A DNA stretch of 64,000 nt from Alloprevotella sp. OH1205_COT-284. GTDB taxonomy: Bacteria; Bacteroidota; Bacteroidia; Bacteroidales; Bacteroidaceae. This document shows, in pieces, positions 1-44,278 of this stretch. The stretch covers positions 1-64,000 of the forward strand of contig NZ_RQYI01000001.1 of NCBI RefSeq assembly GCF_003859795.1, written 5' to 3'. How positions within the stretch are numbered: the stretch's first letter is position 1; every line of letters starts with the position of its first letter. A model generated the notes under the pieces. The model was not told where the DNA came from. It searched no databases and worked only from the letters and a program-made list of their open reading frames with translations. Position numbers and translations under genes: made by a program.

Positions 1-75
1 GAAGGATTTTCTACCTAACGAGTAGAATTTTCTATCTCTTATGTAGAAAATCCCACTTCCCGGGGAGATGACATC
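1..75. repeat. 21-bp-period palindromic array, locus 1
   Basis: Three consecutive 21-nt units can be read: cores CTACCTAACGAGTAG, CTATCTCTTATGTAG and CCACTTCCCGGGGAG, each separated by a 6-nt A/T-rich spacer. The window begins inside or just before the array, so its left limit is unknown. It lies downstream of the SLC13 permease gene (3' end at 213). It belongs to the family also seen at 8.7, 13.7, 23.8, 36.2 and 44.2 kb. Function unknown. Confidence 0.7.
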
Positions 76-142
76 ACCTCCAAAAGACGAAAACACAAAA
101 AATGGCCGGAAAACCGCGCGGCACAAAAATCTCAAACCCGAC

Positions 143-8597: not shown

Positions 8598-8691
8598 CCC
8601 TGCCCTCTCCGCTGCCCGCAGATTGCCGCACGAGCCTTTTCCACATCTCCCGCAGACCGCCGCGAAAAGCGGCCTAAGAGCCGGAGTTTTC

Positions 8692-8783
8692 TACCTCAGA
8701 CTTAAAAAATTCGGCCTCAGAGCTAAAATTTTCCACCTCAGAGCTAAATTCTCCCACCTCAAAGGCGGTTTCCTCCGCCACGC
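8692..8783. repeat. 21-bp-period array, locus 2 (luxS leader)
   Basis: Four units with cores CTACCTCAGACTTAA, CGGCCTCAGAGCTAA, CCACCTCAGAGCTAA and CCACCTCAAAGGCGG, each followed by 6 nt (AAAAAT, AATTTT, ATTCTC, and so on), keeping exact 21-nt spacing. The array ends about 25 bp before the luxS ATG, so it lies in the luxS leader if pfs and luxS are cotranscribed. Function unknown. Confidence 0.75.
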
Positions 8784-8807
8784 AACCTCAACCCACAGCT
8801 TTTGAAC

Positions 8808-10699: not shown

Positions 10700-12566
10700 A
10701 TGGACTTTGAACTGCAACTCCAAGAGTTTATAGACCTCTATACGGAGAACTACGAACTTGAATTCAAGAAAGGAAAAGGAGGATTTCCCGACTCGTTTTG
10801 GGAAACCTATTCGGCCTTTGCCAATACACAGGGAGGAACCATTATCATCGGAGTGAAAGAAAGTGCAAGAGGTTTCGCGCCCATGCGTTTACCTCTAACG
10901 GTGTTGGAGGAATATAAAAAGAAGTTTTGGAACGATGTGAACAATCCGAGCACCATCAGCCACAATCTTTTGAGCGAGAAGGATGTCATCATCAACGAAA
11001 AACTGGGGATCATATCTTTCTCCGTTCCCAAAGCGCACTACCAAGACCGCCCTGTCTTCCGAAAACAAACGCCTTATGGCAATACTTATAAACGCAACCA
11101 TGAAGGCGACTACAAATGCACACGGGAAGAAATCAACCGCATGTTTGCCGATGCCAATACACGGCAGTCATTCGACAGCAGGATCATCGAGGGTTTCACC
11201 ATCGAAGAAGACATCGATCCCATAACACTCCGCCAATATCGTCAGGCTCTGGACAATCGAAGTCCGGGACACCCTTGGCTGCTTGGAACGGACAAAGAAT
11301 TTCTGACTCACATCGGAGCTTATCGCACCGACCGCACGACCCGACAAGAAGGAGTAACAGTGGGCGGCTTGCTGGTGTTGGGAAAATGGACAAGCATTGT
11401 TGAAGCCAAAGAGTTGCATGATTTCTTTCCCGATTTCCAAGAGCGGATTTTTCAAGACAGCAACGAACGATGGGACGACCGCATCTATCCCGACGGAACG
11501 TGGGAGGCGAATTTGTTTCAGTTTTACCGTCGCGTTCTACCACAACTCTATAAACGAGTGCCACAACCTTTCACATTGAAAAACGGCATCAGAATAGACG
11601 ACAGCCCCCTGCATAAAACTCTTCGAGAAGCACTCTTCAACACACTGATACACGCCGATTACTCCTCCGAAGCCCATCTCATCATCGAGTCGTTGCCAGA
11701 TGCCATCCGCTTTTCCAATCCGGGCGATTTGCTGATACCCATTTCTCGTTACTATGAAGGAGGAGAGAGCATTTGTCGAAACAAAATCATCTCTCAAATG
11801 TTCATGCTGATCGGAGGAGCCGAAAAAGCCGGTAGTGGAGTGAGTATCATTCTGAAAGGATGGAGAGAAGGTAATTTCAGGAAACCTTTTGTAGAAGAAA
11901 CCGCCCTACCGGCACGCGTCACACTGACCTTGTCGCTCAACAGACTGCTTCCCGACGAAGCTCTCTCCGAGCTGAACAGAAGGTTTGGAAAAGAAGAATT
12001 GTCTTCTCTCGAAGGCGATGCCATTCGCCTTTTATGTCTTACTCTTTCATACGGAGAAATCAACCATTCCGCCTTATATGGAGAAATGGGGTTGCACACC
12101 TATGATCTCTCTAAACTTCTAAAAAAACTGGCGATCAAAGGTTTCTTATCTTCCACAGGCTATGGAAGAGGAAAAAAATACACGATTGGTGGCAACAACA
12201 CCTTTATCGGAGAGCAAATATCCGATGAACAAAAGCAAATATCCGATGAACAAAAGCAAATATCCGATGAACAAAAGCAAATATCCGATGAACAAAAAGC
12301 AAATATCCGATGAACAACTGGCTGCTATCGTAAAAGAACTTCCCAAAAAGATTACCAAAGAAAAATTGGCAGAAATCATTTGCCGCCTCTGTGCCATTCG
12401 CCCTCTTTCCAAAGAAGAACTCGGACATTATCTCCGAAGAAATCCGGACTATCTGTTCAAACGGATATTGGGGGATCTCATTGCAGAAAACAAACTGGCC
12501 TACTTATATCCCAATATGCCCAAGCATAGAAAACAGGCTTATCGCACCCCGACAAAAACATCATGA
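10700..12566 (+). pseudogene. AlbA_2/Schlafen-type ATP-binding protein, frameshifted in a heptad repeat
   Basis: The first frame (10700-12313, 537 aa) has an N-terminal AlbA_2 domain (EYELEFKKGKGG-like ELEFKKGKGGFPDSFWETYS, then GGTIIIGVKES) and a GHKL-like region (LREALFNTLIHADYS, IRFSNPGDLL, EKAGSGVSIILKGW). It then enters four copies of a 21-nt repeat encoding QISDEQK (12215-12299). The last copy has AAAAA (12294-12298) instead of AAAA, so the frame ends at QKANIR. In the +1 frame the protein would continue through QISDEQLAAIVKEL and a basic winged-helix-like tail to 12566 (about 621 aa in all). Proteins of this type are thought to be DNA-binding regulators or defence-related factors. It may be a true pseudogene, a phase-variable gene, a slippage-decoded gene or a sequencing error. 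Confidence 0.8.
12215..12317 (+). repeat. coding 21-nt tandem repeat (QISDEQK heptads)
   Basis: Three identical 21-nt copies (12215-12277), a fourth copy of 22 nt because of one extra A at 12294-12298, and an 18-nt partial fifth. The repeat length is a multiple of three, so copy-number changes would not alter the frame; only the A-run length does. Confidence 0.95.
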
Positions 12567-13133: not shown

Positions 13134-13239
13134 TCTGTTTTCACAGCCTCTCAGATTTCCAAAGGCGGCGATTTGTCGAAACAAAAAACCTCATCGTTCG
13201 CCCCGTCGCCGCGGCCGCCACTTTCGCTTCGATCGCGAC

Positions 13240-13760
13240 GCCGATGAAACGGCCATTTTCCGACGTTTATCCCCCTATTTTTTTGTTTTTGCCGTTTTGC
13301 CTCCGCTAAAACGCCTTTTTATTTGATTTTCAGCGGATTTCGTGCGAAGGCAAGTGAAGGCAAACTGTCGAAGCAATTTTCAAACAACTGAAAATCAAAA
13401 CATAACGGTGAAGGCAAAACGAGGTGTTTGCTTTCACCTGCTTCCGCCATTGCGGTGCGTAAAACGGCCTTTTCCCCATGCCGTGAAGGCAAAAAATCGC
13501 TTCAACACACTGATTTTCAAACAACTGCAAACAGAGAATTTATTTTGCCTTCACTTGCCTTCGCACGAAACACATTGATATTCAACAACTTTTCTCATTT
13601 TGCGAAGGCAGTGAAGGCAAAAACAATGAATAAGGGATACGCGCGTGCGCGCGAGAGAGGCTGTTTTTTCGCTCCGAAAGGAAGTAGATTTCCCTACCTC
13701 AGAGGTAGAAATGCCTGCCTCAGAGGTAAAGATGTGCAACTCGGAGGCAGTCGTGTTTTG
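13240..13760 (+). repeat. composite GTGAAGGCA / CG-tract / 21-bp-array element, copy A
   Basis: Copy A of a three-copy element. In order it has TTTTGCCTCCGCTAAAA (13295-13311), a 27-bp arm (13338-13364) holding two GAAGGCA words, an inner hairpin (13407-13418 with 13427-13438), a further GTGAAGGCA word (13483), the exact reverse complement of the 27-bp arm (13544-13570), a direct word pair (13602-13620), the alternating tract ACGCGCGTGCGCGCGAG (13639-13655), and a 21-bp array (13684-13755). Array cores are CTACCTCAGAGGTAG, CTGCCTCAGAGGTAA and GCAACTCGGAGGCAG. It fills the space between convergent bcp and oxyR. I see no gene in this stretch. Confidence 0.85.
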
Positions 13761-13858
13761 CCTGCTCTTTCCGTTGCTTGGTCGGGCATGGGCGAAGATC
13801 CAAAATCGAGGTTGCCGAAGATGAAAACCGTTTCGCAAACTGCCGGAAAATCAAAAAT

Positions 13859-23700: not shown

Positions 23701-23754
23701 CATTTCGGTTTTTGAAAATCCCGCTGCTCCCCTCATGCACTTCGCCGCATTTGG

Positions 23755-24230
23755 ATGGGAGGTAGAATTTTCTAACTAAGCGTTAGTTTTTTCTACATGG
23801 GAGGCAGTGATCGCCGCGAAAGCAGAAGAGGAAAAAACATCGTCCCTCGCGCGCACGCGCGCGTTCCCTTGTGATTGAATTTTGCTTTCACTGCCTTCGC
23901 AAAACAGCACAACACACTGAACATCAATCCGTTTTGTGCGAAGGCAAATGAAGGAAGAATAAAAAATGGATTTGCAAAAATCTGAAAATCAACCCATTGG
24001 AGCTATTTTTTGCCTTCACCTATCCGAAATGGCAATGTTTCACACCGAGAGAGCGGAAGGAGGTGAAGGCAAACACTGCTTTTTGCCTTCACCGTAACAC
24101 CGCTGATTATCAACCCCTTGAAAAACCCTTTAAGGGGTTTGCCTTCACTTGCCTTCGCACAAAACAAACTAATAATCAAGACGATAGATCATTTAGCGAA
24201 GGCAAAACCGCAAAAAACAAAATATGGGGT
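23755..24230 (-). repeat. composite element, copy B (inverted)
   Basis: Same order of blocks as copy A but on the other strand. Array cores GGATGGGAGGTAG, CTAACTAAGCGTTAG and CTACATGGGAGGCAG (23755-23809) come first, then the alternating tract CTCGCGCGCACGCGCGCGT (23847-23863), then TGCTTTCACTGCCTTCGC (23883-23900), one arm of the stem (23932-23954), inner words at about 24010, 24062 and 24084, and the other arm (24138-24164). The two arms pair at 22 of 23 positions. Compared with copy A, a C in one arm has become T and its partner G has become A. It is the most diverged of the three copies and contains no conserved frame. It lies between ribE and a nitroreductase gene. Confidence 0.8.
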
Positions 24231-24247
24231 GAAATTGGGGGCAAAAC

Positions 24248-24302
24248 GCGGCTCGATGTCGTCTTGCTTCCGCACGCAAAGAACTTTTCGACATCAAGCC
24301 GC
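24248..24302 (-). terminator. terminator after the nitroreductase gene
   Basis: GCGGCTCGATGTCG (24248-24261) and CGACATCAAGCCGC (24289-24302) pair at 13 of 14 positions; on the minus strand the hairpin is followed by GTTTTG. It lies 40 bp beyond the stop codon. Confidence 0.55.
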
Positions 24303-35493: not shown

Positions 35494-35789
35494 CACAGAA
35501 AAAGCGAGACACCGACATCTTTCGGGCGAAATATCTTGTCTTAGAGCTACCGCTCACCGCTCATTTCTATCATATCGTTGCCTGCAAGACCGCGGCAAAA
35601 CCATACGCATTCCCAAAACCACACGCAGCAAAACCGCCGCCGATTTCTCCGCAATGTGAACGAACGCACCTTGGGTTGCGCATCAAGTGTGGTTTTTAGG
35701 GGGGGAAGATTGCCCCGTTACGGGAGGCTTATCTCACAATGATCTCATAAAATCGTCGAAAAACATACACTTCTCCTCCCATTTCACTG

Positions 35790-36240
35790 AATATCAACAA
35801 CATCGGAGTGTAGACAACAATTTTCCCATCTACACGAAAAATGGGGAAGTCAATGATACACAGACCAAAAGGAATGTAGACGGATTTCCCCAAAACCTAC
35901 TTATTATACATTTTATACATTCTGCGATTTCGAGCCTTTGCACGCTTTCCCGATGCAACGTGTAGGTTGTGACAACGAATGTAGACGATTTCCCGTGTTG
36001 CATACACTCACAACAATCTATATATCTGCGATTTACACAAAAAATGTAGACAATGTAGACAAAAAAAAGGAAAAAGTCTGGGTAAGGGCTGAAAATGTTT
36101 TTTTTACGAAGAATGGTTGCACCTCCTCTTCGACTTGTCGGGATATGCTTTGGTGCGTCGGAACGCGTCTTACCCAAGGAGTAGAACAAACGGAGTAACG
36201 AGTAGAAAAATCTATCACAGACCTAAATTCCGAAAGTTCC
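35790..36240 (+). repeat. diverged composite element: ATGTAGACA words plus 21-bp array (locus 5)
   Basis: Gene-free region between the ABC exporter and upp. It holds repeated TGTAGAC words (at about 35810, 35875, 35980, 36044 and 36053), inverted pairs TTATACATTTTATACATT (35903-35920), and a direct pair AATGTAGACAATGTAGACAA (36043-36062) with 9-bp spacing. These mirror the GAAGGCA word pairs of the 13, 24 and 44 kb elements. It ends in a 21-bp array (about 36170-36226) with cores TTACCCAAGGAGTAG, CGGAGTAACGAGTAG and CTATCACAGACCTAA. No long C/G-alternating tract is present. The stretch 35494-35789 shows nothing I can identify. Confidence 0.65.
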
Positions 36241-36316
36241 CAATCGCTTTTCTTTTTGCTTCTCTTCTCGGTAATTCGGACTTTCGACATTGGGACTATC
36301 CCCTCTCTCATGGTGT

Positions 36317-43491: not shown

Positions 43492-43727
43492 CGATAATCC
43501 CTTAATTACACCAACGTTTCGCGGCAACTTTTAGTATGTCGTCGCCCTAACGACGCGCTCGTAGAGGAATTGTCGTAAGCCAATTCGGGATAAAGAATAC
43601 TTGTTTTTTAGCTTGAAACAGTTTCATCGGAAGCCCCCAAAAAAGAGGATTATCTTACAGAGGTTTCTATTTTGCTACTTGTTACCTTTATCTTTTGATT
43701 GCCTTTTCTCTTTCGTCGCAGCGTTTT

Positions 43728-44276
43728 CGATGAAACCGCCCTTTTCGGCCGCTTTCTTACCCTATTTTTATTTTTTGCCGTTTTGCCTTCGCTAAAACGC
43801 CTTTCCATTTGAATTTCAGCGGGTTTCGTGCGAAGGCAAGTGAAGGCAAACTTTTTAATCGATTTTCAAACAACTGAAAATCAAGACATAACGGTGAAGG
43901 CAAAACGAGGTGTTTGCTTTCACCTGCTTCCGCCATTGCAGTGCGCAAAACGGCTTACATTCAAGGCAGTGAAAGCAAAAAATCGTTTCAATAAACTGAT
44001 TTTCAGACAACTGCAATCCGAGAACAGATTTTGCCTTCACTTGCCTTCGCAAGAAACTCACTGACATTCAGGAGATTTGCTCGTTTTGCGAAGGCAGTGA
44101 AGGCAAAATGCAATCACAAGGAATACGCGCGCGTGCGCGAGAGCGAAGTATTTTTGTGCCCACGGGAGGCGGATTTACTCAGGTCTGAGTTAGAAATTTC
44201 TGCAAGCCATGTAGTTTTTTCTGCGAGCCATGTAGAATGTCCCACCCGGCATGTGGCTTTTTCCACAAGGAGGGAA
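43728..44276 (+). repeat. composite element, copy C
   Basis: Very similar to copy A (13240-13760) and in the same orientation. TTTTGCCTTCGCTAAAACG (43783-43801), 27-bp arm (43824-43850), inner hairpin with GGTGAAGGCAAA and TTTGCTTTCACC (about 43893-43924), second arm (44030-44056; 26 of 27 pair), direct word pair (about 44086-44107), alternating tract ACGCGCGCGTGCGCGAG (44125-44141) and a 21-bp array (about 44157-44276). Array cores include TCAGGTCTGAGTTAG, CTGCAAGCCATGTAG, CTGCGAGCCATGTAG and CCACCCGGCATGTGG; this is the longest array in the window. It lies between porP and the gene ending at 44279. Confidence 0.85.
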
Positions 44277-44278
44277 CG

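What the first reader, a model, noticed from the sequence alone, without database searches (positions are those of the whole stretch)
44157..44276. Family of intergenic arrays with an exact 21-bp period and a palindromic 15-bp core
Six intergenic places (1-75, 8692-8783, 13684-13755, 23755-23809, 36170-36226, 44157-44276) hold three to five tandem units of a 15-bp core plus 6-bp A/T-rich spacer. The core tends to CTACC...GGTAG (ideal CTACCTCAGAGGTAG), so each unit is nearly self-complementary. Core sequence varies a lot between and within arrays, but the 21-bp spacing does not. 21 bp is two turns of B-DNA, so successive cores would face the same side of the helix. That combination (conserved spacing and symmetry, loose sequence) is what one expects from a binding platform for a dimeric protein or from a transcribed stem chain, not from a simple minisatellite. 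I do not know of a description of this family, but I cannot search.
Basis: partly seen in the sequence, partly recalled or inferred. Interest (0 to 1): 0.8.

Follow-up and report, generated by a model that had tools for sequence, protein, structure and literature searches.

The report
Intergenic DNA arrays phased every 21 bases
Between the genes of this bacterium and several relatives lie many short arrays of partly mirror-image DNA units whose letters differ from family to family but whose spacing, 21 or 22 bases (two turns of the double helix), does not, which suggests unknown proteins that dock side by side on one face of the DNA.

Summary
A test that uses no motif, run on 305 kb of intergenic DNA sampled from 10 species of the genus, finds 116 self-similar segments at lag 21 and 21 at lag 22, against 0-11 at each other lag from 14 to 40. 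Unrelated sequence families with different core lengths share the pitch. Four of the six window arrays are one end of ~0.5-kb dispersed non-coding elements. Arrays lie in convergent, co-directional and divergent gaps at similar density, come and go between close species, and show units inverted in place. Core halves do not covary, against a one-unit RNA stem. The REP transposase RAYT was not found in the own genome. Best reading: REP/MITE-like interspersed elements whose units are half-site pairs for dimeric DNA-binding proteins stacked on one helix face. No binder was identified. New variant of a known kind; ten literature searches found no description of the shared two-turn pitch.

The parts
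8..91 (.). Array 1: four units at 21 bp (cores at 11, 32, 53, 74), at the start of the contig
8688..8771 (.). Array 2: four units (cores at 8691, 8712, 8733, 8754) between a phosphorylase-superfamily gene and luxS; no larger element
13691..13753 (.). Array 3: three units (cores at 13694, 13715, 13736), with the perfect CTACCTCAGAGGTAG core
13172..13778 (-). Dispersed type A element (TGCCTTCACTGCCTTC word pairs) that ends in array 3
23748..23810 (.). Array 4: three units (cores at 23751, 23772, 23793)
23749..24263 (+). Dispersed type A element that begins with array 4
36170..36226 (-). Array 5: three non-palindromic units TTAGGTCTGTGATAG / CTACTCGTTACTCCG / CTACTCCTTGGGTAA (read on the minus strand)
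35583..36292 (-). Dispersed type B element (CTACATTGTCTACA word pairs) that begins with array 5
44155..44277 (.). Array 6 (the given finding): five to six units, cores at 44158, 44179, 44200, 44221, 44242 and a weak one at 44263
43696..44277 (-). Dispersed type A element that ends in array 6

Best explanation
These are members of several families of short, non-coding, interspersed elements in the intergenic DNA of this genus of Bacteroidales. An element is an array of about 2-8 units; a unit is two inverted half-sites, and units follow each other at exactly 21 bp (22 bp in some families), two turns of B-DNA. Shown: the pitch, its independence of the letters, turnover of arrays between close species, units inverted in place, independent variation of the halves, similar density in all kinds of gap, and, in the own genome, arrays as one end of ~0.5-kb dispersed elements. 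Inferred: the pitch is held because dimers of sequence-specific DNA-binding proteins sit side by side on one face of the helix; each word family has its own binder; and binding serves either the multiplication of the element (transposase-like) or the packing of intergenic DNA. Which of the two cannot be told here.
For: Motif-free lag test, 10 genomes of the genus, 305 kb of gaps: 116 segments at lag 21, 21 at lag 22, 0-11 at the other 25 lags from 14 to 40. Motif-free dyad test, 14 genomes: 30 clusters at 21, 17 at 22, 5 over the other 16 spacings together; with other arms 22, 15 and 10. Different core lengths at one pitch. No covariation of core halves, z from -2.6 to +2.0 in 35 position tests. 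Density per kb of gap 0.53, 0.57, 0.56 in co-directional, convergent, divergent gaps of seven genomes. In 25 orthologous gaps of G022 and G016 arrays are in both in 5, in G022 only in 6, in neither in 14; inner words inverted in place at two loci. Dispersed bodies.
Against: No binding protein was found or sought beyond one transposase family. Arrays fold well as RNA in several species, so a role as RNA is possible. The signal is weak in G003, G004 and G008. Coding sequence also shows an excess at lag 21 (28 against 15 at 18 and 16 at 24), so some bias towards 21-bp duplication may exist without any binder. The dyad result rests largely on one genome, G010.
Confidence: 0.45

Rival explanations
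1. The arrays act as RNA: transcribed hairpins at gene ends that stop transcription or protect messenger RNA. Outer units are often inverted copies of each other, so a whole array folds into one long stem with runs of U.
For: Median folding z of arrays -7.9, -6.7, -5.7, -4.5, -2.3 in G022, G016, G043, G010, G000 against -0.5 to -1.3 for other gap DNA, lengths not matched. Outer units inverted in 8 of 9 strict three-unit cases in G022 and 6 of 10 in G016. In co-directional gaps 59 of 76 array segments lie nearer the upstream stop.
Against: Divergent gaps, which need no terminator, are as rich as convergent ones. A hairpin does not need a 21-bp pitch, still less the same pitch in unrelated families. 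No covariation within units. In the own genome the fold is only modest.
Confidence: 0.2
2. Neutral DNA: tandem duplication and template switching at quasi-palindromes make and remodel the arrays, with no binder. The 21-bp pitch would come from the copying machinery.
For: Units inverted in place and an extra 84 bp (four times 21) in one orthologue. Excess at lag 21 also in coding sequence, 28 against 15 and 16 at lags 18 and 24, and a 21-bp x 5 repeat in a window gene. Long arrays at contig ends.
Against: Neighbouring units often differ in their inner words and orientation while pitch and edges stay, which fresh duplication does not give. Other lags in gaps are nearly empty.
Confidence: 0.2
3. 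Operators of ordinary cooperative repressors that regulate the neighbouring genes.
For: Several palindromic sites at two-turn spacing are typical of cooperative repressors (general knowledge, not tested here).
Against: Convergent gaps are as rich as divergent ones and arrays tend to lie away from start codons; arrays turn over between close species; genes next to the type B copies are unrelated housekeeping genes in both orientations.
Confidence: 0.08

Closest known systems
REPs / BIMEs and REPINs (GTAG- and CGTC-tagged palindromic repeats, PMC3733652; first of eight parts and passages read)
   Same: Short palindromic repeats, many copies, extragenic, several families per genome, units in opposite orientation next to each other.
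   Different: REPs are 20-40 bp hairpins with an unpaired GTAG or CGTC tag, mostly between co-directional and convergent genes, GTAG ones tied to RAYT genes. Here there is a fixed 21/22-bp pitch, no such tag was seen, divergent gaps are as rich, and RAYT was not found in the own genome.
BrickBuilt MITE with a 23-nt minisatellite in Porphyromonas gingivalis (PMC4596501; passages read)
   Same: A tandem array inside a dispersed non-coding element in a Bacteroidales genome, 19 places in one genome, copy number varying between strains.
   Different: Unit of 23 nt with another consensus, and terminal inverted repeats shared with insertion sequences; no pitch shared by unrelated families is described in the passages seen.
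Iterons of plasmid origins and operator arrays (recalled, no call)
   Same: Binding sites about two helical turns apart, bound on one face.
   Different: A few sites at one origin or promoter; here arrays are scattered over the whole sampled chromosome.

Membership tests
REP / REPIN | Associated RAYT (Y1_Tnp, PF01797) gene in the genome | tested here: not met
   No match in G000 or in array-rich G043; one match each in G010, G016 and G022; 28 of 58 genomes in all.
REP / REPIN | Unpaired GTAG or CGTC tag at the foot of each hairpin | tested here: inconclusive
   No dedicated search was made; in the printed arrays GTAG is part of the paired edge in G000 and is missing in most families.
MITE | Dispersed non-coding copies | tested here: met
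   Type B at 13 places in 463 kb; type A and G010 elements aligned.
MITE | Terminal inverted repeats matching a transposon, and target duplications | tested here: inconclusive
   G010 elements have inverted CG-rich ends with GCCTTCAC-type words; no transposon partner was searched for; aligned gaps with and without arrays showed no clean duplication.
BrickBuilt | 23-nt repeat unit | tested here: not met
   Pitch 21, less often 22; lag 23 gives 3 segments against 116 at 21.
Intrinsic terminators | Location at transcript ends, hence missing between divergent genes | tested here: not met
   34 of 130 divergent gaps hold arrays, 29 of 112 convergent, 74 of 420 co-directional.
Protein-binding array | A protein that binds the units, with loss of binding when the phase is changed | not testable with these tools
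   Needs binding assays.
Known structured RNA | Match to an Rfam family | tested here: not met
   No match at gathering threshold in the whole window.

The most novel reading that the evidence does not exclude
Intergenic DNA of this lineage obeys a geometric rule: many unrelated palindrome families have been shaped to a two-turn pitch by a set of related dimeric proteins (or one oligomer with changing specificity) that coat intergenic DNA on one helix face genome-wide, an undescribed chromosome-organising or element-spreading system.
Probability: 0.3. Interest if true: 0.85.

Novelty: new variant of a known kind. Interest (0 to 1): 0.62.

Why it matters
Small intergenic repeats are usually defined by their sequence. 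Here the letters are free and the geometry is fixed, over many families and several species, so a search for helical phasing in place of letters may uncover elements that sequence-based repeat finders miss, and it points to proteins that can be fished out with array DNA. Long arrays also lie at ends of contigs of the own genome, so they may hinder assembly.

Tried and rejected
Minisatellite growth alone: not sufficient, because unrelated families share the pitch. REPIN/RAYT: transposase not found in the own genome, though present once each in G010, G016 and G022. Terminators alone: divergent gaps as rich as convergent. Leader of a gene family: the type B element looked like a conserved upstream region, but its neighbours are unrelated and in both orientations. 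Phage or plasmid origin: the exact three-unit frame is in 1 stretch of viral contigs, the body word in none, and window:43380-44290 has no match in plasmids or phages. Spread of the CTA frame over the order: 86 of 295 genomes have a match, but outside the genus forward and reversed-control counts look alike by eye, 0-8 each; among 251 genomes of the family, outside the genus, high counts only in G404 (30) and G407 (50). Exact frames in Treponema, a spirochaete, a Bacilli and a Bacteroidetes record may be chance minisatellites. A dyad-distance count with perfect arms (second half) was too strict to say anything. Synteny over ten genomes: 147 rows, many pairs counted in both directions, with arrays in both 3, one 15, neither 129; too few to judge. 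The gap-similarity script stopped with an error after the listing of the main group, so gaps with arrays outside that group were not listed.

Full report
What was checked. The six places were read and confirmed. In the own genome (G000, 2.31 Mb in 93 contigs) the core occurs at 98 places with at most two mismatches, against 1 for the reversed pattern. I read 463 kb of it (window plus 20 stretches) and trained a unit matrix: 34 arrays score 20 or more, against 0 in one resampled copy and 1-4 when chained at 22, 23, 24 or 26 bp; at threshold 14 it is 41, 1 and 2-17.

The family is wider than its letters. But a frame that leaves the inner nine bases free (CTA-N9-TAG, six A/T, CTA-N9-TAG, at most one mismatch) matches in 26 of the 58, up to 76 per genome, while the reversed control matches in 7 of them with 1-2; inner words differ by species, for example TCGGCGGAC in G002, GGTCCGAGG in G008, AGTAACGAG in G000.

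So I dropped motifs and asked at which lag intergenic DNA resembles itself. In the five best-sampled genomes (G000, G010, G022, G043, G016) lag 21 gives 22, 22, 35, 21 and 27 segments, lag 22 gives 4, 14, 5, 4 and 2, and the other lags from 15 to 30 give 0-3. G006 has 7 and G007 has 9 at lag 21; G003, G004 and G008 have 2 each, one of the two in G008 being a run of N. Pooled over these ten genomes (305 kb of gaps, stricter threshold, N excluded) lag 21 gives 116 and lag 22 gives 21; each of the other 25 lags from 14 to 40 gives 0-11. Controls: three genomes of other families (53 kb) give 0 and 1, the genome G222 of another genus of the family 1 and 3, E. coli (25 kb of gaps) 0 and 0; at the looser threshold E. 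coli gives 1 at lag 21 and 1 each at 24 and 26. Coding sequence of the ten genomes also has more at 21 (28) than at 18 (15) or 24 (16), with 0-1 at 19, 20, 22 and 23. A second motif-free test, three or more dyads at exact spacing, gives 30 clusters at 21, 17 at 22 and 5 over the other 16 spacings together in 14 genomes, most of them in G010 (there 9 gaps at 21 and 7 at 22). With arms shifted by one base it gives 22, 15 and 10.

Different units, same pitch. G022 alone has CTGCAGTGCTTGTAG plus six, GTGGCAGGCCTTGCCAC plus four, and a GTGTCAAGCCGAGATAC set; G016 has GCAAGCCTTGC plus ten; G010 has ATAAACCAAACCTTGGTTTAT as a full 21-bp palindrome and, at 22 bp, GTCYCTTCGCGAAGRGAC, TGGCGTTTCAACGCCA and others; G006 TGTCAGCTGACA; G007 and G003 ATCTCCGAGAT. 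This is the heart of the finding: the spacing is shared, the letters and the core length are not. The family names are my grouping by eye.

Larger elements. In the own genome many arrays are one end of dispersed non-coding elements of about 0.5 kb. Of the 139 gaps of at least 150 bp in the 463-kb sample 49 fall into one similarity group; 34 of these 49 hold an array, but shared arrays alone can join a group, and the script stopped before listing gaps with arrays outside it. The bodies themselves were aligned: type A with TGCCTTCACTGCCTTC word pairs and a CG/CA run next to the array, and type B with CTACATTGTCTACA pairs; both have words about ten bases apart in both orientations. Type B lies at 13 places of the sample, query included. 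One array of the A sort stands before a B body (L025:15691), so the parts recombine. Whole-genome searches with one copy each list 9 long matches for A (9 of 104 candidates scored) and 11 for B (11 of 73 scored), both with the query itself, so these are lower bounds; B was found in no other of the 58 genomes. G010 has a shorter relative of A with a CG-rich run at both ends in most of the ten copies aligned.

Turnover. G022 and G016 share collinear DNA (54 orthologue pairs, median 92% protein identity). Of 25 orthologous gaps, arrays are in both in 5, only in G022 in 6, only in G016 in 0, in neither in 14. Two of the six are weak and one has recognisable units in G016, so three are clear. Where both have an array, inner words are found inverted in place: CTACAGTGCTTGTAG against CTACAAGCACTGCAG at 56.8 kb, and the second unit at 72.0 kb; at 78.3 kb G016 has an extra 84 bp, four times 21.

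Place. Over seven genomes and 662 gaps of at least 100 bp, arrays occur in 74 of 420 co-directional, 29 of 112 convergent and 34 of 130 divergent gaps; per kb of gap that is 0.53, 0.57 and 0.56. In co-directional gaps 59 of 76 array segments lie nearer the upstream stop than the downstream start. This is what one expects of elements that land anywhere in non-coding DNA and are weeded out near promoters. It is not what one expects of terminators or operators.

RNA or DNA. The halves vary independently: 35 position tests in five sets gave z from -2.6 to +2.0 (units in the G000 and G010 sets were picked by a matrix, which may bias them; the G043 set has only two cores and says nothing). Arrays as a whole do fold well in some species: median z -7.9, -6.7, -5.7, -4.5 and -2.3 in G022, G016, G043, G010 and G000, against -0.5 to -1.3 for 85-base pieces of other gaps, lengths not matched. 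Outer units are often inverted copies of each other (8 of 9 strict cases in G022, 6 of 10 in G016, 0 of 1 in G000). So a role as RNA is not excluded, but it does not explain the pitch.

What it most likely is. Interspersed repeats of the REP/MITE sort, built from inverted half-sites at two helical turns. The simplest cause of a common pitch in unrelated sequences is the helix itself: proteins on successive units face the same side. I infer dimeric binders; none was found. RAYT, the mover of REPs, has no match in G000 or G043 but one each in G010, G016 and G022. One viral contig holds the exact three-unit frame; the type A word is in no viral contig and the element has no match in the phage and plasmid collections.

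What is known. Ten searches (listings only, except where named) showed no paper on a 21-bp pitch shared by families. I saw passages of PMC4596501 (BrickBuilt, 23-nt unit) and PMC5771137 (which says that short repeats of 3 to 31 bp were not annotated), and the first of eight parts plus passages of PMC3733652 (REPs). The library lacks most subscription journals, so an earlier description is possible.

Taxon. Porphyromonas is not supported. A contig of G026, same genus as the window's genome, has the length of JAGKTZ010000070.1, titled Prevotellaceae bacterium isolate cow7.9, and the same array sequence; G404, same family, has the array positions of CALUJS01, titled uncultured Phocaeicola. Such titles can be wrong; no tool named the genus.

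Noticed in passing
window 12213-12317: A 21-bp repeat in five nearly perfect copies (97%) at the 3' end of a coding frame (10700-12313), same period as the intergenic arrays but coding.
   Followed up: no
window 43580-43657: A 77-base stretch outside the element has copies at 74-82% identity in G006, G007, G010, G030 and G056, some at contig ends; perhaps the end of an insertion sequence. Not a tRNA by ARAGORN.
   Followed up: partly
G000 contigs C5, C11, C14, C15, C19 (L184-L188): Contigs of the own genome begin or end inside long arrays of CTAAGTAACGAGTAG units, so array length is not resolved there.
   Followed up: partly
L025:15691-16275 and the alignments: An alternating CG/CA run (such as CGCGCGCACGCGCGCG) stands between array and body of type A elements and their G010 relatives; in mosaic copies an A array stands before a B body.
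   Followed up: no
L083 and L089 (Treponema MAG): Runs of ten or more 21-bp units with CTA, GTTCNGAAC-like cores and TAG in a spirochaete; chance or a parallel case.
   Followed up: no
window 8598-8807 and G007:C14 near 49690: The gap between the phosphorylase gene and luxS holds a 21-bp lag segment in both G000 and G007, with quite different letters.
   Followed up: no
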